From positions 124,001 to 188,000 of the forward strand of contig OY754468.1 in NCBI GenBank assembly GCA_963575645.1: 64,000 nucleotides of DNA. Direction: 5' to 3'. Source of the DNA: Xanthostigma xanthostigma (lineage: Eukaryota > Arthropoda > Insecta > Raphidioptera > Raphidiidae). Positions 3,121 to 64,000 of the stretch are shown here, piece after piece. Below the pieces are notes generated by a model, which did not search any database, was not told the DNA's origin, and saw nothing but the letters and a program-made list of their open reading frames with translations. How positions within the stretch are numbered: the first letter of the stretch is position 1; every line of letters starts with the position of its first letter. Both the position numbers and the translations under genes were made by a program.

Positions 3121-3834
3121 TCTTAATATATAAAAATTACGTGTCACATGTTTGTCCGCGATGAACTCCTAAACTACTGAACCGATTTTAAATTTGATTT
3201 GCACACTGTGTGCAATTCGACCCAGCTTGAAAGATAGGATAGCTTACATTTCAATTTATAGTCGCAATATTATTTTATTGCAAATTATTTGTCTATTCCT
3301 TGACAGTCATAATACAACCATATAAGATGGCCATACCTGTTGACTGGATTGAGTGAATATTCAATAGATGGCGCAACGAACTTAACAACCATATAAGATG
3401 GCAATACCTGTTGACTGGATTGAGTGAATATTCAATAGATGGCGCAACGAACTTAACAACCATATAAGATGGCAATACCTGTTGACTGGATTGAGTGAAT
3501 ATTCAATAGATGGCGCAACGAACTTACAACCATATATCTAGATCGAGGATGTAAAAAAACTGAATATCGTTTAAAACTGCTCGGCACGACGGCGCAGCCG
3601 GAGTGCTCGAAATAGAGCAAGTGTTTTAAAGACCAGTTATCCACGAATACTTTACGCTATTTTTTTTCGAGCACGACGGCGCAGCCGGAGTGCTCGACAT
3701 ACACACATATACGCCCATGTATATTTTAAAATAGCTAGCGATTAATAAAATAGATAGATAGATACATAGATGTTCCAATTAAATTGTTTTATTATTTCAC
3801 TTTATACGTAGCGAAGCATGTACAGGGCCGCTAG
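3121..3834 (+). mobile_element. Complete non-autonomous Helitron
   Basis: Starts with TC (TCTTAATATATAAAAATTAC) directly after an A at 3120 and ends with CTAG directly before a T at 3835. This is the A^T insertion rule and the TC...CTRR ends of Helitrons. The start resembles common insect Helitron 5' ends, including the ACTACTGAACCGATTTTAAA segment. A hairpin TACGT/ATGTA with loop AGCGAAGC lies about 12 bp before the end. There is no Rep/helicase frame. The interior holds three 71-bp tandem repeats and two copies of a GCACGACGGCGCAGCCGG-containing segment, the second shared with the Helitron end at 42-191. Confidence 0.85.
3315..3526. repeat. Three 71-bp tandem repeats inside the Helitron
   Basis: CAACCATATAAGATGG recurs at 3315, 3386 and 3457, with nearly identical units (one base difference: GCCATACC versus GCAATACC). 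A partial fourth start is at 3527. The three units contain the same open frame, which is why repetitive short ORFs appear on the minus strand; they are not genes. Confidence 0.9.
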
Positions 3835-38344: not shown

Positions 38345-39147
38345 TTGTTTGCGCACAAATTACGCAAAGACTACTGACCCAAGAAACATACTACACATAG
38401 ATTTGTTGAAGCAAGTATACTTTGCTCTATGCCAGTCTGTAATTAGTTATGGTATAACTGTCTGGGGTGACACCTACAAATCAATATTAAAAATACTTGT
38501 TTCCAGTCAAAAACTCCTACTCCGGATAATCCATAAAAAACCCCGACTTTACCCCTCCTCAGAACTGTTCAATAAATTTCGAATATTGAATATTACACAG
38601 TTATATGCCAAAGCAGTTCTATCCATGTTTCATAAAAAACCTGAAAACCATATCCCTTATCATCATCCTTATAAAACAAGAATGATGTCCTACAATCCTA
38701 ATAATATACAAGTACCAAAAATGACGAAAACTTTCAGCCAAAACCACGCGGTATTCCTTGGTCCCAAACTATATAACAACATACCTGTAAAGCTCAAAAC
38801 AATTCAAAATATAAAAACTTTCAATAAAAAAATATTCAACTGGTTGTTCCATGACGAGAAATCAAAAATTATATACGACATCCTCAACTAATCTGACTGG
38901 ACTAACTGAATGGCTATTAACACATATATTATTTATAACATATAAAATGTTTAATTTATTAATATAATTATTATTTTCCTTTATTTTCATTTTCATTTAT
39001 TTAATAAGCACGTCTGCAGTAATAATTTTGGACTCCTGCCCTAGCACTGGTCACCCAAGTTGGGCAGGATATCCTCTATTTGTATATTTAGTATATTTTG
39101 TATATTTTATTGAGGAAAATAAATAAATAAAATAAATAAATAAATAA
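38345..39147 (+). mobile_element. 5'-truncated non-LTR retrotransposon (3' end)
   Basis: Contains the C-terminal coding end of a jockey/CR1-like polymerase (38349-38891), a 3' UTR of about 225 bp and an AAATAAATAAAT tail at about 39116-39147. Heavy 5' truncation plus a simple-repeat tail is the usual outcome of target-primed reverse transcription. The exact 5' junction and target duplication are not clear. Confidence 0.8.
38349..38891 (+). pseudogene. Non-LTR reverse transcriptase C-terminal fragment
   Basis: A 180-codon open frame without a true start (the first codon is TTG). It holds the region after the RT catalytic core. The YFALCQSVISYGITVWG segment (residues about 27-43) is typical of the thumb of jockey/CR1-like RTs. 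A hydrophobic and basic stretch with the FLGPKLYNNIPVKLK block (residues about 135-149) follows, near the C terminus of such proteins. The catalytic F-A-D-D motif and the endonuclease domain are absent. It is intact to its natural stop, so the insertion is probably fairly young, but it is not functional. Confidence 0.8.
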
Positions 39148-43585: not shown

Positions 43586-45041
43586 TTTTGACGTGATAAC
43601 GTCTTATAAATTGATGAATCACCAATCTTATAAATTGATAAAACACCGGCTGCATGCACGAAAAAGTGTAACGTTCCTAAATCCTAATGTTCCTAACGTT
43701 CGTAACGCGTAACGTTCCGCCTGACCCTGTGCGTGCTTTTTGCTAATTTCTCGCTCAATTTAAATCAGATCGGTTTGAAACCAGTCTTAAACGAAAGAGG
43801 AGAACATTTTACATAGATTTCGTATAGCAGAATTTGCCTAAACAGTTTTTTTATACAAATTTATATAGAAAAATAGCTGTATAAATGCAATGTTGTCTAA
43901 TGCATGGCGCGACGCGGTCGGTCGTCTTTGTTTGCCGTACATGGAAATTAGAAAATAACGTATGTCTTGTCTTAACATGAAAACGGCTGCATTTCTAATG
44001 TTTAATTCAATTTTTTGACATTAGTATTTTGTGAAATGCAACGCCTTCTAAGTTAAGTATTGGAATAACTAATTATTATTAGAACATAATACTTTGACAG
44101 TTGCAAACGTCACTTTTGACATTTCTTATCATTCCGACACCAAGGATAAGCGGATTGAAACCAAATTTTGGGAGGTTTAGGTTATGTATTACGGAATACG
44201 TTATCACGTAAAATTATCGTCCGTAAACCGACTTTATATTTATATTTATATTTATTGAACGTACTCAACAGGCAAAATGCCCAATTACAGAGTAGTATTC
44301 ATAATTAATATACACGCACACAAATTATAACATAAGATATAACACAAAACAAAAAAAAAATAATAAAATGAGTTCTTACAAGTTCACATTAGTGCCAAGT
44401 ACATTAAAAATCATTTAATATAGCAGCTAGACATAAATTTACGAAGGCCAATGTCAAAAAGGTCAATCTCTGGTAATGTAAACAGATGTTTGTTTAGCAA
44501 TTGAGTCATTTGAGCAACGGGAGAACCATCATGAGCCAAAGTTGTGGGTCTTATGCTTGTGGTGAAACGAATACATTTACTCCTAGTTCTCAAATTTGGC
44601 ACAACAATGTTGAATTGAGATAGTAGGCTACTGTTGTCAATGTATCCATGCAATATTTTATACGCAAAAATTAAAAGTGCAGCCTCTCGTCGACATTGAA
44701 GTGTCTTAACATTATAAAAGTTAGTTAACTCGAGATAAGGCATAAATTTTGGGTAATAGTGCTCAAATTTGTAATGTAGAAATCTAAGGAATTTGCTTTG
44801 AACCATTTCTATTTTTTTTATGTACAAGTTAAACATCGGATTCCATATGACTGCAGCATATTCAAGTTTGGATCTAACAAAAGAATTGAACAGTATAAAG
44901 ATAACATTAATGTTAGTTAGATCTCTTGAAAAACGAGTAATAAGTCCTAAGATTCTGTATGCATCATTAACCATGGTTTCTATATGTGTCTTAAAAGATA
45001 GATTGCTCAGAAATGTGACACAGACAACCAATTTTTTTTTT
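43586..45041 (+). mobile_element. ACGTGATAACGT-family MITE, copy M (type b), split by a non-LTR insertion
   Basis: Bases 43586-44236 are a type b copy closely related to L. The right arm breaks after CCGACTTTA, a non-LTR fragment occupies 44237-45019, and the arm resumes with ACAGACAACCAATTTT at 45020-45041. This shows the order of events: MITE first, non-LTR insertion later. At the right junction the arm joins directly to non-LTR coding sequence. Confidence 0.9.
44237..45019 (-). mobile_element. 5'-truncated non-LTR retrotransposon inside MITE M
   Basis: Reads on the minus strand. The 3' tail is the (TATTTA)n-like sequence at 44237-44256, the 3' UTR runs to about 44410, and the coding fragment lies at 44411-45019. 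The truncation point abuts the last 22 bp of the MITE. No clear target duplication is visible, suggesting a small deletion or blunt join. Confidence 0.85.
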
Positions 45042-45091
45042 CGGGATATCGAAGCATTTGTTGCATCTCGACTACTGGCCAAATAACACAC
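44411..45091 (-). pseudogene. Non-LTR reverse transcriptase C-terminal fragment fused to MITE sequence
   Basis: A 226-codon open frame. Residues from about 25 onward are non-LTR sequence: NDAYRILGLITRF, then SFVRSKLEYAAVIWNP, the conserved segment after the RT catalytic core in jockey/CR1-like elements. A C-terminal region with the FLRFLHYKF block follows. The first residues (including SRKKKLVVC) are translated from the MITE right end and its flank, so the apparent start is an accident of insertion. Catalytic and endonuclease parts are missing. Not functional. Confidence 0.8.
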
Positions 45092-52806: not shown

Positions 52807-53136
52807 TCTAAACCTGAAGTAAAATATACAATGACAAGCTGTCAAATAAGCACACACTTGTACACAATATTATTATTATTGATTCACACGTATTAAAATT
52901 TACAGAATTTCAGAAAAAGAAATGTACAAATTATTATTTATTTATTTTAAATATTGACCTAATTATACTTAAAAATTAAATTAACAGATAATAAAGGATC
53001 TTCGCGACTATATGTATTTTAGTTTGATTAGAGATAGGTACCGTGTGTTTATCTCCAATTTTAAACGCTTTATATTAGTTTGGGTTGTAAATATGTATGT
53101 ATGTAACTAACTCCGTAACGGAATCTTTGAGCATAA

Positions 53137-53552
53137 TTTTCACCAATTTCCCGAAGTCTGATTAATTTGAAACTTTGCATACGTATCAAGGACCGATGAC
53201 AATGCAATAATTTGATAACAGTTTCCCATTATCCTTATTAGGACCCCCAGGATTAATAAATTCTTTTATAGATCCTCTGTAGTAAACGCTTTATTTTCAC
53301 CAATTTCCCGAAGTCTGATTAATTTGAAACTTTGCATACGTATCAAGGACCGATGACAATGCAATAATTTGATAACAGTTTCCCATTATCCTTATTAGGA
53401 CCCCCAGGATTAATAAATTCTTTTATAGATCCTCAGATTAATTTGAAACTTTGCATACGTATCAAGGACCGATGACAATGCAATAATTTGATAACAGTTT
53501 CCCATTATCCTTATTAGGACCCCCAGGATTAATAAATTCTTTTATAGATCCT
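53137..53552. repeat. Recent tandem repeat, 157-bp unit, 2.7 copies
   Basis: CACCAATTTCCCGAAGTCTG starts units at 53141 and 53298, and ATTAATTTGAAACTTTGCAT recurs at 53161, 53318 and 53437. The third copy lacks the first 38 bp of the unit, and the shared parts are identical by eye. The unit resembles insect dispersed-repeat sequence (ATACGTATCAAGGACCGATG). Confidence 0.88.
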
Positions 53553-53566
53553 CAAACTAAAAAGTG

Positions 53567-53794: not shown

Positions 53795-54219
53795 GTTTAT
53801 ATTAAGTAACACTCTAATATCATTATTTTGTTATACCGCGTGCCCGTAGTGACGTCACCATGTACAACACGGCGCTTTGGTAATGTCTACTCGGTAGGTA
53901 GAAGGTATACTTATTAGTACTTGTTTTTATTCGTAATAATTTCAATGTTTATGTTTAAAAGTTTGCGCTGTTTAAAATAAAAACCGGTCAAGTGTGAGTC
54001 GGACTCGCACACGAAGGGTTCCGTACACTATGTACTTTTTAAATACTTTTGTAAAAGAAACAAGAGAGGCGCTATCACAATATGTAACCAGTGGGAGTAT
54101 GCAAGTAGTTCAAGAATTTCAAGGCGTGAAATTTTACATAATACACCCCGGCGTTTTTATATTATAAACACTTTTTTTACAAAAATTTCTTGTAGAATAA
54201 AATAATATAAAGTTTGATA

Positions 54220-54780
54220 AATATACCATTATATCAAATAACAACGTTATGGCAAATATCTCTGTTGCGCATGCGCCGATTTCCCCAAAAAAATATACAA
54301 AACTTTAGAGAATATTAAACCATTATGAAAAATATACCATTATTATATAAAAACAATGTTATAGCACATACTCCTCTGCGCATGCGCCGCCTTTCCCCCT
54401 AAAACTTTTTACAAAACTTTCTTTTAAACCATTATAAAATATATACCTACTATTATTATATAAAACAACGTTATTGCATATATTTCTTTTGCGCATGCGC
54501 CAATTTTTCCTAAAAAATTTACAAAACTTTTGTAAACATAGATAGAATAATAAACCGTTATAAAAAGTATGCCGTTATTATATAAAAAACAGCCTTATAG
54601 TATATATTTCTTCTACGCATGCGCCGATTTTTTTCAAAAATTTATTTTACAAAACTCCTGTAAAACAAAATAATAAGCCTTTATGAAAAGTATACTATTA
54701 TCTTATAAAAACAACATTATAATATATATATTTCTTTTGCGCTTGCGCCGACGTCTCTCAAAAACAATAGGCCTCTTCAT
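54220..54780. repeat. Five imperfect 111-124 bp repeats with a GCGCATGCGC core
   Basis: GCGCATGCGCC or a close variant starts at 54267, 54378, 54491, 54615 and 54739, each embedded in AAACCATTATA- and TTTACAAAACTTT-like sequence. Two related units occur in reverse inside MITE copy E (about 22197 and 22291). Confidence 0.8.
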
Positions 54781-56853: not shown

Positions 56854-57494
56854 TTATATGTAGTATGAATTTCATAAATGTGAAAACTTTAAATGAAATT
56901 AAATTTAAAAAATAGTTGTTTTTGTCATTACTATAAGTAGTACCTATTATACATCTGTAATTTTTTTATACATTAATTTTGTGATTAGAAATTTGGATAA
57001 GACGTTAGACGATTTGATAAAGAGACGGCACTGCTTATATGTATAATCAAAAATTGTTCCTCAATTTCGGCAAGAAATCTAAAAAAAAAAAAATTACCGG
57101 TCAGTTTTAGTAGCGAATGTTTTAAAATTAAATAGTGGTGAAAAATGGGTAAAAAATTTGAGTAGAACTTTTTCAGTCTAGACGATTTTTTTAATTGTAA
57201 ATTATAATTGTTTGATATCATGTATTTTGTAAAGATTTTAAGAATTAGAAAAATTTCTTAAAATATCTTTTAAAAGTTTTTAATGAACTTTATTTTCTGT
57301 TTTCATTACTGTTTTCTATACATATTTGATTTTATTTTTAAACTAGTCTGATTCCAGAACTAGTAGATTTATTGATAATTTTAAATTAAAACAATATTTA
57401 AAAAAAAAAGAAACAAATAAGCCAATATATTATGTATTTATAAATCAAGTCCGAGTCATAATTTTCATGACACTATAGTTTTATAATTGAAGAT
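56854..57494. other. Unassigned AT-rich DNA upstream of the LTR element
   Basis: Nothing recognisable. The last bases before the LTR are TAATTGAAGA; the matching target duplication would lie beyond the window. Confidence 0.5.
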
Positions 57495-58557
57495 TGTAAC
57501 GATATTAATTTAATAATATTAATATCACGGTAAAATCTAGTTTGCTTTATATTCGTGTACAGTAATAGGTACACGAAATTGTGTTCAGACGCGTTTATGA
57601 TTAAGCAGAGACCGGTATTAAGTACGTATTAGCGCCGCGTCTAATTGAACTTATATTTTTGTAATTAATATTATGCTGTCCGCCAATAGATGGCTACTCA
57701 TTAATTTCCTTTTTAATTAATATTTTTATTAAAAATGATTAGCGGTCGTACCTACTGCGGTTCGACCTTTATTGGTGTCAAGCAACAGTGCGCATAAAAA
57801 TTTGTCTTTCAGTGACCACCCTGTTGGCTCAGTGGCTTGCTAGTTTACGATCGTGTTCCGTCTATTCTAGTATGGCCTATCTAGTCTAACGGGGAAAGCT
57901 TTGAATAGCCCTTTAAGTGCTGGTTTACGATCGTGTTCCGTCTATTCCAGCATTTTGTGGATTCATTCTCAGCTCGCTTGCCGAAGATCTGGAAACTATT
58001 GAAGTACGATCGTGTTGTCGTCTGCTCCGATAAGTTTCCCGGTGTCTTCTAATAGCACACTGCTTGACCATCGCGAGGGTTCTGGTTCATGATCGGGATT
58101 TCGTCTGTTCCAGACCTTAGCGTAAATCGACCCACGACCGCAACGACCGTATTAAATTCAATGACCGTGCCGAGGATATGAATAATGACCTAATAAAAAA
58201 ACACAACGTAGGAATGACCTAGAGATTCGAGTTAAATATAATTAGAGTCCCGCCCGAGTTTAGGATCCTTCAGACCGCTAGACTCATTAACTTTATTATT
58301 ATGTGAAATTGAATGTGACCGTACAAATAATATCGTTATTTGCACTGATGGGAGTATTTAATTAAAAGTACTCTGTTGACCGATGAAAGTAAATTAGCCA
58401 TTTGAACCTATTGTTTATTTCCATTATATATTTTGTGTATTGTTATAATTTGTCATTTGAGTTTTATATATTAAATTATACGTGTTAAAACTTTAACGCT
58501 CGAACCTGTTTATTTAAAAACCCAACCAACCCCCACAAGAAAAATAATAACGTAACA
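57495..58557 (+). repeat. 5' long terminal repeat
   Basis: Begins TGTAACG and ends CGTAACA (TG...CA), 1063 bp. The start is defined by the point where the two copies become identical (57495 and 62945), the end by the CA before the primer binding site. It holds four copies at about 80-bp spacing of a sequence like TTTACGATCGTGTTCCGTCT. AT-rich TATATATT- and TATATATTAAA-type sequences near 58432-58475 could serve as promoter or polyadenylation elements, but R and U5 cannot be placed from sequence alone. Confidence 0.93.
57844..58113 (+). promoter_or_regulatory. Four ~80-bp-spaced LTR repeats (ACGATCGTGTTCCGTCT)
   Basis: Copies start at 57844, 57924, 58003 and 58086. The first two are nearly identical; the later two are degenerate (GTACGATCGTGTTGTCGTCT; TTCATGATCGGGATTTCGTC). 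The same array is in the 3' LTR at +5450. Regular spacing in an LTR suggests transcription-factor or packaging-related sites; the factor is unknown. Confidence 0.6.
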
Positions 58558-58559
58558 AC

Positions 58560-58577
58560 TGGTACCAGTGACCAGGA
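58560..58577 (+). promoter_or_regulatory. Primer binding site
   Basis: TGGTACCAGTGACCAGGA starts 2 nt after the LTR end, with the TGG complementary to a tRNA CCA end. The first nine bases resemble tRNA-Leu type sites; the exact tRNA was not identified. Confidence 0.7.
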
Positions 58578-58642
58578 TTCTTATAAAACAAAGATCCGAT
58601 TGACCTATTGTTATAACAATACCGACCGTACACTGGTTCAAA

Positions 58643-59683
58643 ATGGACGTTGACAGACTTGTTATCCGACCTGACCTTCCTAGACAATCCACCCTTCAAG
58701 AAGAAGAGCAGATTGATGAACTCACACAGGCAACGTCAACACCGCCTGAGCCAATCCGACCCGACCCAAATGTTGAACAAAATATTGACATTGCTGACCG
58801 ACCTAATGATTTTTCAGCACGCTTGCGTGCATTGAACTTAGACCTAACGCCCACTGTCCGTTCCTATAAAGCTATTTCCGTGTACAAATGGGGAATAAAG
58901 TTTACCGGGGACGATCGAAATAGTTTGGAGACGTTTTTGGAGGATGTAGAAGACCGACGCCGTGACAACAGTATAACAACAACCGACTTGTTGCACTCAG
59001 CTTCCGGACTGTTTGGAGGCTCAGCTTTACAAGTCTACCGCTATGCTCGAGATAAGTTACGCACATGGGATGAGCTAGTGCAAACGTTACGCAAATCTTT
59101 TAGAGATCCAGACTATGACCATTTATTAAAAATAGAAATTAATAAACGAAAACAGGGACCTACTGAACCATTTTCTGTTTATGTCGCAAAAATGTTTAGT
59201 CTGTACAAACGTATGGAGCGTCCACCTGCATATAGTGAACAAATGCAGACAATTGAACTTAATTGTCTTCCCGATTATCAGGAACAAATAAGCTTGAACG
59301 AACCCCGAACCATTGACGAACTTGAAAACTTAGTTTCTCGACTTGAACGAGGACGACTGAGAGCACGCCGTCAATCGTGCCCCCCGAACCAACTGTTGGA
59401 ACCCGATTTATCAAAAGTATCCAACATGACCGGAACACAAAATGATAATATACGGGTGATCCAAAAGTCACGAACTAGTCCTGTTTATGAAGTAAACACT
59501 GCGAACAATAAACCGGCATTCCGCTACAAGTGTTGGAACTGTCGCAAACAAGGACATGCATACAGAAACTGCCCTAACCCGCCGAATCACCAATTCTGCA
59601 ATACGTGTGGAATGAACGGAACTACGACGACAAATTGTCCTCGCTGTCGACAGACACAGGGAAACGACCGACAGGCACGTTAA
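58643..59683 (+). CDS. gag: Gag (capsid-like protein with zinc knuckle)
   Basis: 346 residues from the first ATG, 85 bp after the LTR, with no earlier ATG in frame. The N-terminal 70 residues are acidic and Pro-rich. Residues about 80-235 form a retrotransposon capsid-like domain: YKWGIKFTGDDRNSLETFLE, then SASGLFGGSALQVYRYA, then WDELVQTLRKSFRDPDYD, and RKQGPTEPFSVYVAKM. A basic stretch follows, then a canonical CCHC knuckle (C297-x2-C300-x4-H305-x4-C310). A second knuckle has Thr327 in place of His (C319, C322, C332). The protein would form particles and bind element RNA. Its last 26 codons overlap the pol frame and carry the frameshift site. Sure of class; lineage within Ty3/gypsy not assigned. 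Confidence 0.93.
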   Translation: MDVDRLVIRPDLPRQSTLQEEEQIDELTQATSTPPEPIRPDPNVEQNIDIADRPNDFSARLRALNLDLTPTVRSYKAISVYKWGIKFTGDDRNSLETFLEDVEDRRRDNSITTTDLLHSASGLFGGSALQVYRYARDKLRTWDELVQTLRKSFRDPDYDHLLKIEINKRKQGPTEPFSVYVAKMFSLYKRMERPPAYSEQMQTIELNCLPDYQEQISLNEPRTIDELENLVSRLERGRLRARRQSCPPNQLLEPDLSKVSNMTGTQNDNIRVIQKSRTSPVYEVNTANNKPAFRYKCWNCRKQGHAYRNCPNPPNHQFCNTCGMNGTTTTNCPRCRQTQGNDRQAR

Positions 59684-61479
59684 CAGGTCGTAAACGTCGC
59701 CTGTATTCCTCTAGACCGACCTTAAAACAATCTGCACCGACCGCTGAACAGAACGTGATTTCAAAAATGCCAGGAGATGCCCGACCGTATTTATTTGTGA
59801 CCATTGGAGGAAGAGAGTTACCCGGATTATTAGATTCAGGAGCTAGCCGAACGATGACCGGACCGAGAGGAAGATTGCTACTCGCTGAACGGGGATACCG
59901 CCCTCGACCTTCAATAAACAAAAAAATTCAGACCGCTGATGGAACCACGTATTCTGTTGAAGAAGAAATGAGTGTGTTAATGACCGTATCTGACCGAACA
60001 CGCCGTATTACTGTCCTATTAGTGCCCGAATTACCGCAAGATCTAATTCTCGGCATTGATTTTTGGACCACTATGCAGATAGTGCCCGATATGAGTAGAG
60101 GAACTTGGACATTTTCTCCGAACACTGACCATGTAACGACCATAACGACCATCACGCCCAAAGAAAAGTTGAGGAACAAAAGGTACAGAAAAAGAAAAGA
60201 CAACGCTAGAAATGATGCATTGTGTGAACCTCTGAACGATACTGTACCGATTGATGTTATCACTTTTCCGGAACAATTACATGACCGCTGGTATAATAAA
60301 ATGACCGAAAATATTGAAGCCAACCCTGATGATTATCCACGATGGAAAATTCAAGATAACAAGATTTACAAAAAAATCACCGACCGACACCACTTTCCAA
60401 ATCCTGCGTATGAATGGAAATTAGTGGTGCCCAATAAATTACGACCCGAAATACTCAAACAGTTTCACGATGAACCGACCGCCGGACACTTAGGTGTCGC
60501 CAAAACATACGACCGAATAAAACGAAGTTATTATTGGCCGAAAATGATCGTTGACGTAGCACGATACGTGCATGACTGCAGTGTATGTCAACAAACAAAA
60601 CCTGATAATAAAGCGCCCCAAGGATTAATGGGACAAGACCGGACCGCAGATGTGCCCTGGAGAACGATCAGTGCTGACCTGATGGGCCCTTTTCCTCGAT
60701 CGAAAAGGGGTCGTAGATACCTACTGGTTGTTCAGGACACGCATACAAAATTTGTCTTGTTATTCCCGCTTCGGGCCGCCACGTCAAAATTAGTCGCTCA
60801 ACACTTGAACGACTCAGTTTTTATGATATATGGTGTTCCCGAGTTTCTAATCTCTGATAATGGAGCCGAATTTACCGGGAAAAATGTACGCGAATTATTA
60901 GCAAAATTTGGGGTAAAGGCGTTATTAAATGCCCGTCGACATTCGCAAGCGAATCCTACCGAGCGCACGAACTTGACTATAAACAATATGCTACGCGCAT
61001 ATGTGACCGACAAACACAACGAGTGGGACGCTAACATAGCCGAGCTTGGCTTTGCGTTGCGAACTGCGCGAAGCGATGTCACCAACTACACCCCTGCTTA
61101 TCTGAATTATGGGCGCGAACTAAAAATTCACGCCAGTGAATATCAAAACGTCGCTCCCGATACAACAAACGACCACGTCTCGGAACTGATACATCTTTTC
61201 ACTGAAGTAAAAGATCGCTTGCAAAAGGCTCATCAAGACAGCGCCGTCCGATATAATTTGCGCCGCCGGACAAATGAGTACAATATAGGAGACCGAGTTC
61301 TGAAAAGGAAATACGCACTATCCAATGCTACGCAGGGATATGCCGCCAAATTAGCTCCCCGGTACGAGGGCCCGTTTTCCATCAAGAGGAAAATTTCGCC
61401 GATAATTTATGAGCTAGCAAAAATGGACGGTAAAAGCATTGGAATATGGCATATTAGTGATTTAAAAACGTTTAACTAA
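59605..61479 (+). CDS. pol: Protease-integrase polyprotein without reverse transcriptase
   Basis: 624 codons open in the -1 frame relative to gag. The frame opens inside gag without an ATG, so it is probably made by frameshifting at 59659-59665. Aspartic protease: LLDSGAS (Asp77) and LILGIDFW (147-154). A linker of about 100 residues follows, including a Lys/Arg-rich patch and PDDYPRWKIQDNKIYKK, the segment that normally follows RNase H. Integrase: zinc finger H288-x6-H295-x29-C325-x2-C328, catalytic Asp358, Asp418 and Glu453 (34 residues between the last two), and a GPY/F module near 575-610. No RT (YxDD) or RNase H sequence exists here or elsewhere in the element. There are no stops or frameshifts, so this is an open fused frame rather than decay. 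Confidence 0.9.
   Translation: MWNERNYDDKLSSLSTDTGKRPTGTLTGRKRRLYSSRPTLKQSAPTAEQNVISKMPGDARPYLFVTIGGRELPGLLDSGASRTMTGPRGRLLLAERGYRPRPSINKKIQTADGTTYSVEEEMSVLMTVSDRTRRITVLLVPELPQDLILGIDFWTTMQIVPDMSRGTWTFSPNTDHVTTITTITPKEKLRNKRYRKRKDNARNDALCEPLNDTVPIDVITFPEQLHDRWYNKMTENIEANPDDYPRWKIQDNKIYKKITDRHHFPNPAYEWKLVVPNKLRPEILKQFHDEPTAGHLGVAKTYDRIKRSYYWPKMIVDVARYVHDCSVCQQTKPDNKAPQGLMGQDRTADVPWRTISADLMGPFPRSKRGRRYLLVVQDTHTKFVLLFPLRAATSKLVAQHLNDSVFMIYGVPEFLISDNGAEFTGKNVRELLAKFGVKALLNARRHSQANPTERTNLTINNMLRAYVTDKHNEWDANIAELGFALRTARSDVTNYTPAYLNYGRELKIHASEYQNVAPDTTNDHVSELIHLFTEVKDRLQKAHQDSAVRYNLRRRTNEYNIGDRVLKRKYALSNATQGYAAKLAPRYEGPFSIKRKISPIIYELAKMDGKSIGIWHISDLKTFN
59659..59704 (+). promoter_or_regulatory. Programmed -1 frameshift signal in the gag-pol overlap
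   Basis: The heptamer GGGAAAC (59659-59665) lies in the gag frame as G GGA AAC, the X XXY YYZ form. After a 5-nt spacer, ACAGGC (59671-59676) pairs with GCCTGT (59699-59704), and ACGT/ACGT extends the stem with one bulge. CGACC (59665-59669) can also pair with GGTCG (59686-59690), which would give an H-type pseudoknot. The same heptamer is used at retroviral gag-pro sites such as that of SRV-1. Confidence 0.8.
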
Positions 61480-61500
61480 TTAAACGAATAACTAAAATGA

Positions 61501-61590
61501 ATTACGCAATTGCGTAATCTAAGATCAAAATTATTTATGTAACATCGACTATAAAAAGACCGGCGATAACAGCAGTCTCATTCAGTTGAA
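61501..61590 (+). promoter_or_regulatory. Candidate internal promoter for ORF3
   Basis: Between the pol stop and ORF3 lie a perfect 18-bp palindrome ATTACGCAATTGCGTAAT (61501-61518; overlapping C/EBP-like TTGCGTAA half-sites), a TATA box TATAAAAAG (61550-61558), and two overlapping arthropod initiator matches TCATTC and TCAGTT (61578-61587). The A of the first initiator is 30 bp from the TATA start. The leader to the ORF3 ATG would be only 8-12 nt. Confidence 0.55.
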
Positions 61591-61591
61591 A

Positions 61592-62131
61592 ATGGACTTC
61601 TTGGACATCGACGACGTACCGACCTTCGAAGATGAACAGCGCACACCCAATACGCCGCCGACACTATCGCCGTGCCCTTCTATCAACTCCTTCAACAAAC
61701 CACCGCAGGAACGCTTCCCCGAAACGCCGCCAACGCGAGGAATAGAGGATCGTTCACCACTGGAACTGCTACCGTGGAGGTTGATCCAATTGACCCTCTC
61801 ACCCCCTAAGAGGCGTCGACGTGTGATCCCGCCGCCGGTTCCAGAGGCTTTACTGAGGCCACCGGCGACTATAACGCCAGCCGCCAAATCGACACCACCA
61901 CCACCAATAAAACCTCCAGCACCTTTAAAACCAGCTATAACGCCAGTGTCAACGCCACCGACGTCGCGACCGTATGTGCCGCCGCTGCCCACCTGGACTC
62001 CAGCCTTGAGAAGACGATGTAGGAGGAAGACCGTACTGCCCGATGGACGCGTGATTCGTTTCACGAAGGCCGCCAACGGACAAATCCGTATGGGACGCGT
62101 TGTCCCCAGTGTGTGTAAAGTAGTGGACTAA
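61592..62131 (+). CDS. ORF3, proline-rich basic protein of unknown function
   Basis: 179 residues from the ATG at 61592 (an upstream in-frame TTG is not needed). I do not recognise a family. The N terminus is acidic (MDFLDIDDVPTFEDE). The middle is strongly Pro/Thr-rich with repeated TPP, PPP and PPAP segments. There are two basic clusters (SPPKRRRRV and LRRRCRRK) that could be nuclear-localisation or RNA-binding signals, and a compact C-terminal part, LPDGRVIRFTKAANGQIRMG. There is no signal peptide or membrane segment, so it does not look like an envelope although it sits in the env position. It follows pol by 112 bp and seems to have its own promoter. Strong codon regularity and lack of stops favour a real gene. 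Confidence 0.75.
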   Translation: MDFLDIDDVPTFEDEQRTPNTPPTLSPCPSINSFNKPPQERFPETPPTRGIEDRSPLELLPWRLIQLTLSPPKRRRRVIPPPVPEALLRPPATITPAAKSTPPPPIKPPAPLKPAITPVSTPPTSRPYVPPLPTWTPALRRRCRRKTVLPDGRVIRFTKAANGQIRMGRVVPSVCKVVD

Positions 62132-62309
62132 GGTTTTGTGCTGAGTAAGCTAAAGTGTTTGGTATGTGAACTTTTGTTTTTTTTTTTGATAAATAGTGAT
62201 TATTTCCTAATGCAATATTAACATTTAGAACATTGACCGCATTTTGAAATATCACGATACCTTTTTTTGTTGTAGATTATTGAAATGTTGAATTTCAACT
62301 ATGTTTGAT

Positions 62310-62600
62310 ATATTTTAATACAATATTCATATTAATGATTTTTGACCGTATTAAATAAATCACGACATAGTATTAATTTTTTTTAACTTTGCCCGTGTTG
62401 GATATATTCTAATACAATATTCATATTAATGATTTTTGACCGTATTAAATATATCATAGCACAATATTCATGTTAATGATTTTTGACCGTATTAAATATA
62501 TCATATTACACAATATTCAGTTTAATGATTTTTGACCGTGTTTATGATATTAGAATACAATATTGACCTTTTTGAAATTTGACTGTATTGATGAATACAG
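62310..62600 (+). repeat. ~47-bp tandem repeats in the 3' non-coding region of the LTR element
   Basis: CAATATTCATATTAATGATT followed by TTTGACCGTATTAAAT begins at 62321, 62415, 62462 and 62511. A degenerate unit lies between the first two and a partial one after the last. All contain TTTGACCGT. Confidence 0.8.
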
Positions 62601-62932
62601 AAGTTTTGAACTTTCATTATTTTGCCCGTATTTGAAAATTATTAATGCAGACCTTTTGTAACTATTAATAATTTGGACCATATTTAGAGATAAGATAAAT
62701 GTTTGAACGTTGATAGTAGTATTAAGGACATTGAACTGTGATTATTTACGTTTATTTGAAACGTTGAAGTGAAATATTTTGTTTTGTATTTTTGATATTT
62801 AGTCATATGAACGATAGTGAATAATATTGAAAATTGATCAAATGATTGCCCTAAGTACAATTTTTGTTTTACATTTAAGTTTATGACCATTGGTGCACAT
62901 AACTATGACCTTATAATCGCGTATTTTTACAC

Positions 62933-62944
62933 GGGCCGGAGGAG
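62933..62944 (+). promoter_or_regulatory. Polypurine-like tract before the 3' LTR
   Basis: GGGCCGGAGGAG directly precedes the 3' LTR. It is the likely plus-strand primer site, although two C bases interrupt the purine run. Confidence 0.65.
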
Positions 62945-64000
62945 TGTAACGATATTAATTTAATAATATTAATATCACGGTAAAATCTAGTTTGCTTTAT
63001 ATTCGTGTACAGTAATAGGTACACGAAATTGTGTTCAGACGCGTTTATGATTAAGCAGAGACCGGTATTAAGTACGTATTAGCGCCGCGTCTAATTGAAC
63101 TTATATTTTTGTAATTAATATTATGCTGTCCGCCAATAGATGGCTACTCATTAATTTCCTTTTTAATTAATATTTTTATTAAAAATGATTAGCGGTCGTA
63201 CCTACTGCGGTTCGACCTTTATTGGTGTCAAGCAACAGTGCGCATAAAAATTTGTCTTTCAGTGACCACCCTGTTGGCTCAGTGGCTTGCTAGTTTACGA
63301 TCGTGTTCCGTCTATTCTAGTATGGCCTATCTAGTCTAACGGGGAAAGCTTTGAATAGCCCTTTAAGTGCTGGTTTACGATCGTGTTCCGTCTATTCCAG
63401 CATTTTGTGGATTCATTCTCAGCTCGCTTGCCGAAGATCTGGAAACTATTGAAGTACGATCGTGTTGTCGTCTGCTCCGATAAGTTTCCCGGTGTCTTCT
63501 AATAGCACACTGCTTGACCATCGCGAGGGTTCTGGTTCATGATCGGGATTTCGTCTGTTCCAGACCTTAGCGTAAATCGACCCACGACCGCAACGACCGT
63601 ATTAAATTCAATGACCGTGCCGAGGATATGAATAATGACCTAATAAAAAAACACAACGTAGGAATGACCTAGAGATTCGAGTTAAATATAATTAGAGTCC
63701 CGCCCGAGTTTAGGATCCTTCAGACCGCTAGACTCATTAACTTTATTATTATGTGAAATTGAATGTGACCGTACAAATAATATCGTTATTTGCACTGATG
63801 GGAGTATTTAATTAAAAGTACTCTGTTGACCGATGAAAGTAAATTAGCCATTTGAACCTATTGTTTATTTCCATTATATATTTTGTGTATTGTTATAATT
63901 TGTCATTTGAGTTTTATATATTAAATTATACGTGTTAAAACTTTAACGCTCGAACCTGTTTATTTAAAAACCCAACCAACCCCCACAAGAAAAATAATAA
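62945..64000 (+). repeat. 3' long terminal repeat (last ~7 bp outside window)
   Basis: Identical base for base to 57495-58550 in a line-by-line comparison. The expected end is 64007, so the right target duplication is not visible. Confidence 0.93.

What the first reader, a model, noticed from the sequence alone, without database searches (positions are those of the whole stretch)
57495..64000. A young LTR element that encodes gag, protease and integrase but no reverse transcriptase
Seen directly: 1056/1056 identical LTR bases, fully open frames, protease (LLDSGAS, LILGIDFW) and integrase (HHCC; D358, D418, E453) in one continuous frame, and nothing like RT or RNase H anywhere in 6.5 kb. The linker still ends with the segment that normally follows RNase H, so RT-RH was removed in frame. 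Known: Ty3/gypsy order is PR-RT-RH-IN, and non-autonomous LTR elements usually lose most coding or keep gag only. Inference: this element makes its own particle, protease and integrase and borrows RT, so it may be a stable semi-autonomous lineage.
Basis: partly seen in the sequence, partly recalled or inferred. Interest (0 to 1): 0.9.

Follow-up and report, generated by a model that had tools for sequence, protein, structure and literature searches.

The report
Mobile element family without its polymerase
A genomic parasite that normally copies itself with its own reverse transcriptase has lost that enzyme, kept its shell, protease and integrase genes, and become far more common than the rare enzyme-bearing relative with which it appears to exchange sequence.

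Summary
Confirmed, and more than a single deletion. The window copy is a complete Ty3/gypsy-type LTR element (1063-bp LTRs, 4-bp target duplication) encoding Gag, a -1-frame PR-IN polyprotein and a third ORF, without RT or RNase H. The junction sequence occurs at 64 places in the host genome (58 exact for a 25-mer across it; reversed controls 0). Close RT-bearing copies number two: one complete (L010), one decayed. L010 shows that RT-RH was lost in frame. Outside the PR-RT-RH block it is nearly as close to the RT-less copies as they are to each other (PR dS 0.55; gag 0.04, IN 0.01). All 13 complete RT-less copies examined have 0-1 LTR mismatches, and their variants are heavily recombined. Best reading: a young, active, semi-autonomous lineage reverse transcribed in trans that recombines with the RT-bearing form. 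Gag is constrained, IN marginally, PR not detectably, so "makes its own protease" is not shown. L010 has lost the frameshift site and fuses Gag to Pol. RT-less elements supplying Gag or Gag-Pro are known in plants; in ten literature searches I saw none keeping PR and IN while losing only RT-RH. New variant of a known kind.

The parts
57491..57494 (.). Target site duplication AGAT (second copy lies just outside the window)
57495..58557 (+). 5' LTR, 1063 bp, TG...CA
58560..58578 (+). Primer binding site, a variant of TGGTGCCGTGACCAGGAT, the complement of the 3' end of host tRNA-His(GTG)
58643..59683 (+). gag, 346 aa, Retrotrans_gag match and zinc-knuckle-like motifs
59659..59665 (+). -1 frameshift heptamer G GGA AAC between gag and PR-IN
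59605..61479 (+). PR-IN frame (open from 59578), no RT or RNase H
59797..60063 (+). Aspartic protease domain
60175..60190 (+). RT-RH deletion junction (about 1.32 kb present here in L010)
60427..61473 (+). Integrase: H2C2, rve core with D358, D418, E453, SH3-like end
61550..61586 (+). TATAAAAAG box and TCAGT initiator-like site before ORF3, same spacing in the window copy and in L030
61592..62131 (+). ORF3, 179 aa, proline-rich, conserved in the sister family, function unknown
62308..62564 (+). 47-bp tandem repeat in the 3' untranslated region
62934..62944 (+). Polypurine tract
62945..64000 (+). 3' LTR, first 1056 of 1063 bp

Best explanation
A young, active, semi-autonomous lineage of a Ty3/gypsy-type LTR retrotransposon. 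One event joined the end of PR to the segment after RNase H in frame and removed RT-RH (shown by comparison with L010). The product is present in 64 places (shown). It uses the same LTRs, polypurine tract and tRNA-His-type primer site as an RT-bearing sibling (shown). Its Gag and, by -1 frameshift, Gag-PR-IN build the particle, and RT comes in trans from the rare RT-bearing sibling (inferred). Co-packaged RNAs recombine during reverse transcription, so the RT-bearing and RT-less forms share one pool of LTR, gag, IN, ORF3 and 3' sequence and differ mainly in the PR-RT-RH block (mosaic shown, route inferred).
For: A 25-mer across the junction matches exactly at 58 places, reversed control 0; a 29-mer at its PR side with up to 3 mismatches at 64 places, control 0, all with 0-1 mismatch. 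Only 2 of 39 scored RT candidates are close: L010 100%, L029 98% partial. Of 14 complete copies (13 RT-less and L010), 14 have a 4-bp duplication, 12 have 0 and 2 have 1 LTR mismatch. Of 17 RT-less loci covering gag to IN, gag is open in 17 and PR-IN runs open to the end in 16 (L009 stops early; L013 is open but lacks 276 nt of IN). L010 averages 96.5% or more against the 13 RT-less copies in every 100-bp bin except those from 59595 to 60294 (77.1-92.5%). In 13 RT-less copies 2049 of 4095 informative site pairs are incompatible, 23% under 100 bp and 56% beyond 1.5 kb; 0 of 500 permutations are as low for near pairs. Ratio to neutral: gag 0.37-0.45 (p 0.002-0.009), IN 0.50-0.57 (p 0.03-0.07) depending on the transition bias assumed. 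Sixteen junction variants, one matching L010's post-RNase H side. PBS complements host tRNA-His.
Against: PR shows no detectable constraint (RT-less stem 5 synonymous to 9 nonsynonymous changes against 17 to 8 on the L010 branch, Fisher p 0.09). IN's constraint is marginal, and gag and IN recombine with the RT-bearing form, so constraint cannot be assigned to the RT-less form alone. L010 has the largest mean distance to RT-less copies in gag. L010 has lost the frameshift heptamer and has one fused gag-pol frame, so it may be a poor RT source. Recombination could be gene conversion between genomic copies. No expression or particle data.
Confidence: 0.7

Rival explanations
1. Passive parasite: the RT-less form is an ordinary internally deleted derivative mobilised entirely by helper proteins; its frames are open only because it is young and keeps recombining with the helper.
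For: PR looks neutral and IN's constraint is marginal; LTR mismatches 0-1; sequence shared with L010.
Against: Gag and ORF3 polymorphism is below neutral; 64 copies against one complete close RT-bearing copy that has lost its frameshift site make it less likely that L010 supplies all Gag (inference).
Confidence: 0.22
2. The PR block of the RT-less form came from an unsampled related family, or L010 is an RT-less body that re-acquired a PR-RT-RH module; the deletion itself then need not be old. This can hold together with the best explanation.
For: Divergence sits on the 5' side of the junction: 77-84% mean identity in the PR bins from 59695 to 60194, but long-linker copies such as L019 and L022 are identical to L010 just after the junction. 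RT-less PR is less diverged from sister family B (42 of 78 synonymous sites) than L010's PR is (56.5 of 75).
Against: No donor was seen: every place found by the PR-side 29-mer had 0-1 mismatch, and none has an RT hit within 9 kb, though a donor with more than 3 mismatches would be missed. The decayed L029 already has window-like gag with L010-like PR-RT.
Confidence: 0.35
3. RT is supplied mainly by sister family B (L030 type, six places), not by L010.
For: Six places at 80% over the RT query. In L030, the one read, the pol frame is intact, GGGAAAC is kept and the commonest primer site form is the same; the RT-RH protein is close to L010's (dN 0.046).
Against: No LTR match to L030 by blastn at 1e-5, and gag and IN are only 75-77% identical in DNA.
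Confidence: 0.2
4. Assembly artefact or one-off deletion.
For: None found.
Against: 64 places on 12 contigs, different target duplications in the 14 complete copies, 16 junction variants.
Confidence: 0.01

Closest known systems
RLG_Sabrina_SA with RLG_Wilma (wheat), PMC9744471, passages seen
   Same: High-copy Gypsy element without RT that keeps an open Gag-protease frame; called semi-autonomous; a partner is proposed to provide RT
   Different: Sabrina also lacks integrase and shares almost no sequence with its partner; here IN is kept and the two forms are nearly identical outside one block
RLG_Quinta with RLG_Cereba (einkorn), PMC11302176, passages seen
   Same: Non-autonomous partner proposed to supply Gag; shared PBS and LTR ends
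CR2-Sb-B and noaCR5-Sb elements of sorghum, PMC4079200, passages seen
   Same: Majority nonautonomous; recombination between element forms
   Different: In most CR2-Sb-B members RT and integrase are both absent or truncated
BARE-2, TR-GAG, LARD, TRIM (features recalled, not from a call)
   Same: LTR elements mobilised in trans
   Different: They lack gag, keep gag only, or lack coding capacity
HeT-A of Drosophila telomeres (features recalled)
   Same: Gag-encoding element without its own RT
   Different: Non-LTR element, no PR or IN

Membership tests
Ty3/gypsy-type LTR retrotransposon | LTRs beginning TG and ending CA, short target duplication, PBS and PPT | tested here: met
Ty3/gypsy-type LTR retrotransposon | Pol order PR-RT-RH-IN | tested here: not met
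   Window copy has PR-IN only; the sibling L010 and L030 have PR-RT-RH-IN. I therefore call it a deleted derivative of that type, not a full member
Ty3/gypsy-type LTR retrotransposon | Placement in a named clade by an RT tree | not tested
   No named reference set was used
Non-autonomous LTR retrotransposon with an autonomous partner | A multi-copy population lacks a required enzyme | tested here: met
   64 places; of 39 RT hits none lies within 9 kb of one, the nearest (70% identical) at 9.6 kb
Non-autonomous LTR retrotransposon with an autonomous partner | Partner with the same PBS, PPT and LTR ends, active at the same time | tested here: met
   L010: LTR 99.6% to the window copy, 0 LTR mismatches, PBS variant shared with L012 and L015, same PPT. 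Whether L010 is functional is unknown
Semi-autonomous LTR element (contributes proteins) | Open, constrained coding frames | tested here: inconclusive
   Open in nearly all copies read; gag below neutral, IN marginal, PR not
Semi-autonomous LTR element (contributes proteins) | Proteins made and used in the particle | not testable with these tools
   Needs expression and particle data
sORF2/FAST-like accessory protein (for ORF3) | Short protein with a transmembrane segment | tested here: not met
   Highest 19-residue hydropathy 0.55 in the window copy, 0.64 and 0.74 in two relatives (usual transmembrane cut-off about 1.6, recalled); definition from passages of PMC11952523

The most novel reading that the evidence does not exclude
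A retrotransposon that is becoming two-part by division of labour. The abundant RT-less form supplies free Gag and, by frameshift, Gag-PR-IN, while the rare RT-bearing form has lost the frameshift site and can make only a Gag-Pol fusion, so neither is self-sufficient. The two RNAs travel in one particle and share one recombining body, with the PR-RT-RH block as the only private segment.
Probability: 0.22. Interest if true: 0.82.

Novelty: new variant of a known kind. Interest (0 to 1): 0.58.

Why it matters
The RT-less LTR elements I saw in papers keep gag or gag-protease, and others that I recall keep less. A lineage that drops only RT-RH and is found at 64 places against two close RT-bearing ones bears on which functions are needed in cis and which can be shared. 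The near-identical RT-bearing sibling would make trans-complementation testable by removing one locus, and the copies give a natural record of recombination between the two forms.

Tried and rejected
Unique deletion or artefact: rejected. An RT hidden elsewhere in the element: none among the three forward ORFs scanned; the reverse-strand ORFs listed in the element are at most 164 aa and were not scanned. A donor family for the RT-less PR: not seen with the 29-mer. ORF3 as a sORF2/FAST-like fusogen: not met. RNA structure after the gag-pol junction: z 0.11 (window), -0.24 (L030), 1.46 (L010), so no support beyond the heptamer. Host identity and element clade: not determined. Papers: ten searches of the held open-licence library; among the listings and the passages opened I saw no element keeping PR and IN without RT, but most listed papers were not opened and most subscription papers are not held. 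PMC2582038 and PMC3248453 (passages) gave background only; the latter says that most of its fungal elements lack one or more pol domains, without naming this combination in what I saw. ORFs 38349-38891 and 44411-45091: no Pfam match.
Full report
Observation. The window is G000:C5:124001-188000 of an unnamed 623-Mb assembly. The element spans 57495 to seven bases past the window end. LTRs are 1063 bp and identical, flanked by AGAT. gag (58643-59683) overlaps a PR-IN frame (open 59578-61479). Pfam finds Retrotrans_gag, aspartyl protease, integrase H2C2, rve and an SH3-like end, and no RT or RNase H. GGGAAAC at 59659 sits in phase for a -1 shift from gag to PR-IN. A third ORF (61592-62131) follows.

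Copies. The LTR search scored 40 of 188 candidates, and the 500-bp junction search 40 of 80, all 40 full length at 98-100%. The 25-mer across the junction matches exactly at 58 places, control 0. The 29-mer at its PR side with up to 3 mismatches gives 64, all with 0-1 mismatch, control 0. PR was read in 64 of 64 (17 in longer loci, 47). The PR-to-junction length is kept modulo 3 in 64 of 64; stops occur in 2 (L048, L066); DSGA is kept in 62 and LILGIDFW in 63. The linker has a long form (16) and a short form (48), and 16 sequence variants; one (L077) matches L010's sequence after RNase H. So one junction was inherited and then changed.

Frames. In 17 RT-less loci that cover gag to IN, gag is open in 17; PR-IN is open to its end in 16 (L009 stops early), and L013 lacks 276 nt of IN in frame. 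ORF3 is complete in 15 of the 16 where it was wholly fetched; L012 is broken. L027 is a further copy with a large 5' loss, and L024 holds only an LTR in the stretch fetched.

RT-bearing relatives. A search with L010's 1305-bp RT-RH stretch gave 39 of 39 candidates scored: L010 itself, L029 (98%, 961 bp, decayed and interrupted), six at 80% (family B, one read: L030), the rest at 63-73%. L010 has LTRs without mismatch, duplication AAAT, and one open frame of 1369 aa from its ATG holding Gag, PR, RT, RNase H and IN. About 1.32 kb separates its PR side from its post-RNase H side. Its gag-pol junction has lost GGGAAAC and the frames are fused; 17 of 17 RT-less copies covering the site, L029 and L030 keep the heptamer. 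L030 has separate gag and pol frames, RT, and an ORF3.

Mosaic. In 100-bp bins L010 averages 96.5-100% against the 13 complete RT-less copies, close to the values among the RT-less copies themselves, except in the bins from 59595 to 60294 (92.5, 83.2, 82.5, 83.8, 77.1, 78.6, 90.9%). The last of these includes the linker, where copies with the long form match L010 at up to 99.1%. NG86 mean dS to L010: gag 0.036 (17 copies), IN 0.014 (16), ORF3 0.10 (15), PR 0.55 (17). L010 has the smallest mean distance to RT-less copies in IN and LTR, but the largest in gag and, by far, in PR. Outside PR the nearest RT-less copy to L010 changes from block to block, with many ties. Among 13 RT-less copies 2049 of 4095 informative site pairs are incompatible, rising with distance from 23% to 56%. 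I think template switching between co-packaged RNAs explains this best; gene conversion is not excluded.

Activity and age. The 14 complete copies were taken from the top LTR hits, so they are biased to copies like the window's. All 14 have target duplications; LTR mismatches are 0 in 12 and 1 in 2. Mean LTR differences between copies (0.36-0.66%) exceed those between the two LTRs of one copy (at most 0.1%), so the lineage has probably passed through several rounds of copying without its own RT.

Selection. One search counts variants against the window copy and compares them with a neutral expectation. PR, 62 of 64 copies (two with stops dropped): 8 synonymous, 21 nonsynonymous, ratio to neutral 1.13, p 0.68. 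gag, 17 copies: 20 and 19, ratio 0.37-0.45, p 0.002-0.009. IN, 15 copies: 16 and 21, ratio 0.50-0.57, p 0.03-0.07. ORF3, 13 copies: 17 and 18, ratio 0.47, p 0.02. Ranges reflect two transition biases. An earlier count with 54 PR copies gave the same picture; with equal rates on 17 copies PR was 0.75, not below neutral (p 0.32). On the stem PR had 5 synonymous to 9 nonsynonymous changes, against 17 to 8 on the L010 branch (p 0.09). So Gag appears to be used by the pool and IN perhaps so, while PR in the RT-less form may be kept open mainly so that IN is translated.

Primer. The form TGGTGCCGTGACCAGGAT, present in 6 of 14 complete copies and in L030, complements the 3' end of host tRNA genes: 14 places match, and the three examined are tRNA-His(GTG). 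The window copy carries a variant shared with L014, L019 and L020; L010 shares another with L012 and L015.

ORF3. The 40 places scored of 73 candidates are 97-100% identical. Two outside proteins, 52% and 44% identical, were the only hits. TATA box and initiator-like site keep the same spacing in the window copy and L030 although the flanks differ, which suggests a separate transcript.

Other databases. Of 439 proteins matching PR-IN, the best 120 were listed. P0001 (100% over 91% of the query) lists PR and IN without RT; P0072 lists IN without RT or PR; P0086 lists RNase H without RT; the others list RT. P0001's source organism is not given.

Literature. Semi-autonomous Gypsy elements with Gag-Pro (Sabrina_SA) or Gag (Quinta) are described in wheat, and sorghum centromeric elements with RT and IN absent or truncated; passages only were seen. 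No PR-IN element without RT appeared in the listings of ten searches.

Verdict. A real, young, multi-copy lineage, probably semi-autonomous, with an identified RT-bearing sibling; a new variant of a known kind.

Noticed in passing
57495-64000, also L030: GACCG is the most strand-biased 5-mer: 44 sense against 2 antisense in the window element, 34 against 0 in L030. The internal part of the window element has 30 against 6.9 +- 2.5 in dinucleotide shuffles, in coding and non-coding parts and in all three codon phases of PR-IN. Could be an RNA packaging or binding motif.
   Followed up: partly
61550-62131: ORF3 with a TATA/initiator-like promoter conserved in L030, and a conserved proline-rich, basic protein of unknown function.
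   Followed up: partly
58558-58642 and the start of gag: RT-less copies differ in the gag N-terminus (341, 359, 367 or 480 aa stop-to-stop frames), the longest close in length to L030's 477.
   Followed up: no
L010, gag-pol junction: The only complete close RT-bearing copy has lost the frameshift heptamer and fuses gag to pol.
   Followed up: partly
58560-58578: Four forms of the primer binding site among 14 complete copies, odd for a site that is partly copied from a tRNA.
   Followed up: no
3314-3536, 53136-53554, 54215-54751: Tandem repeat arrays with units of 71, 157/119 and 112/124 bp.
   Followed up: no
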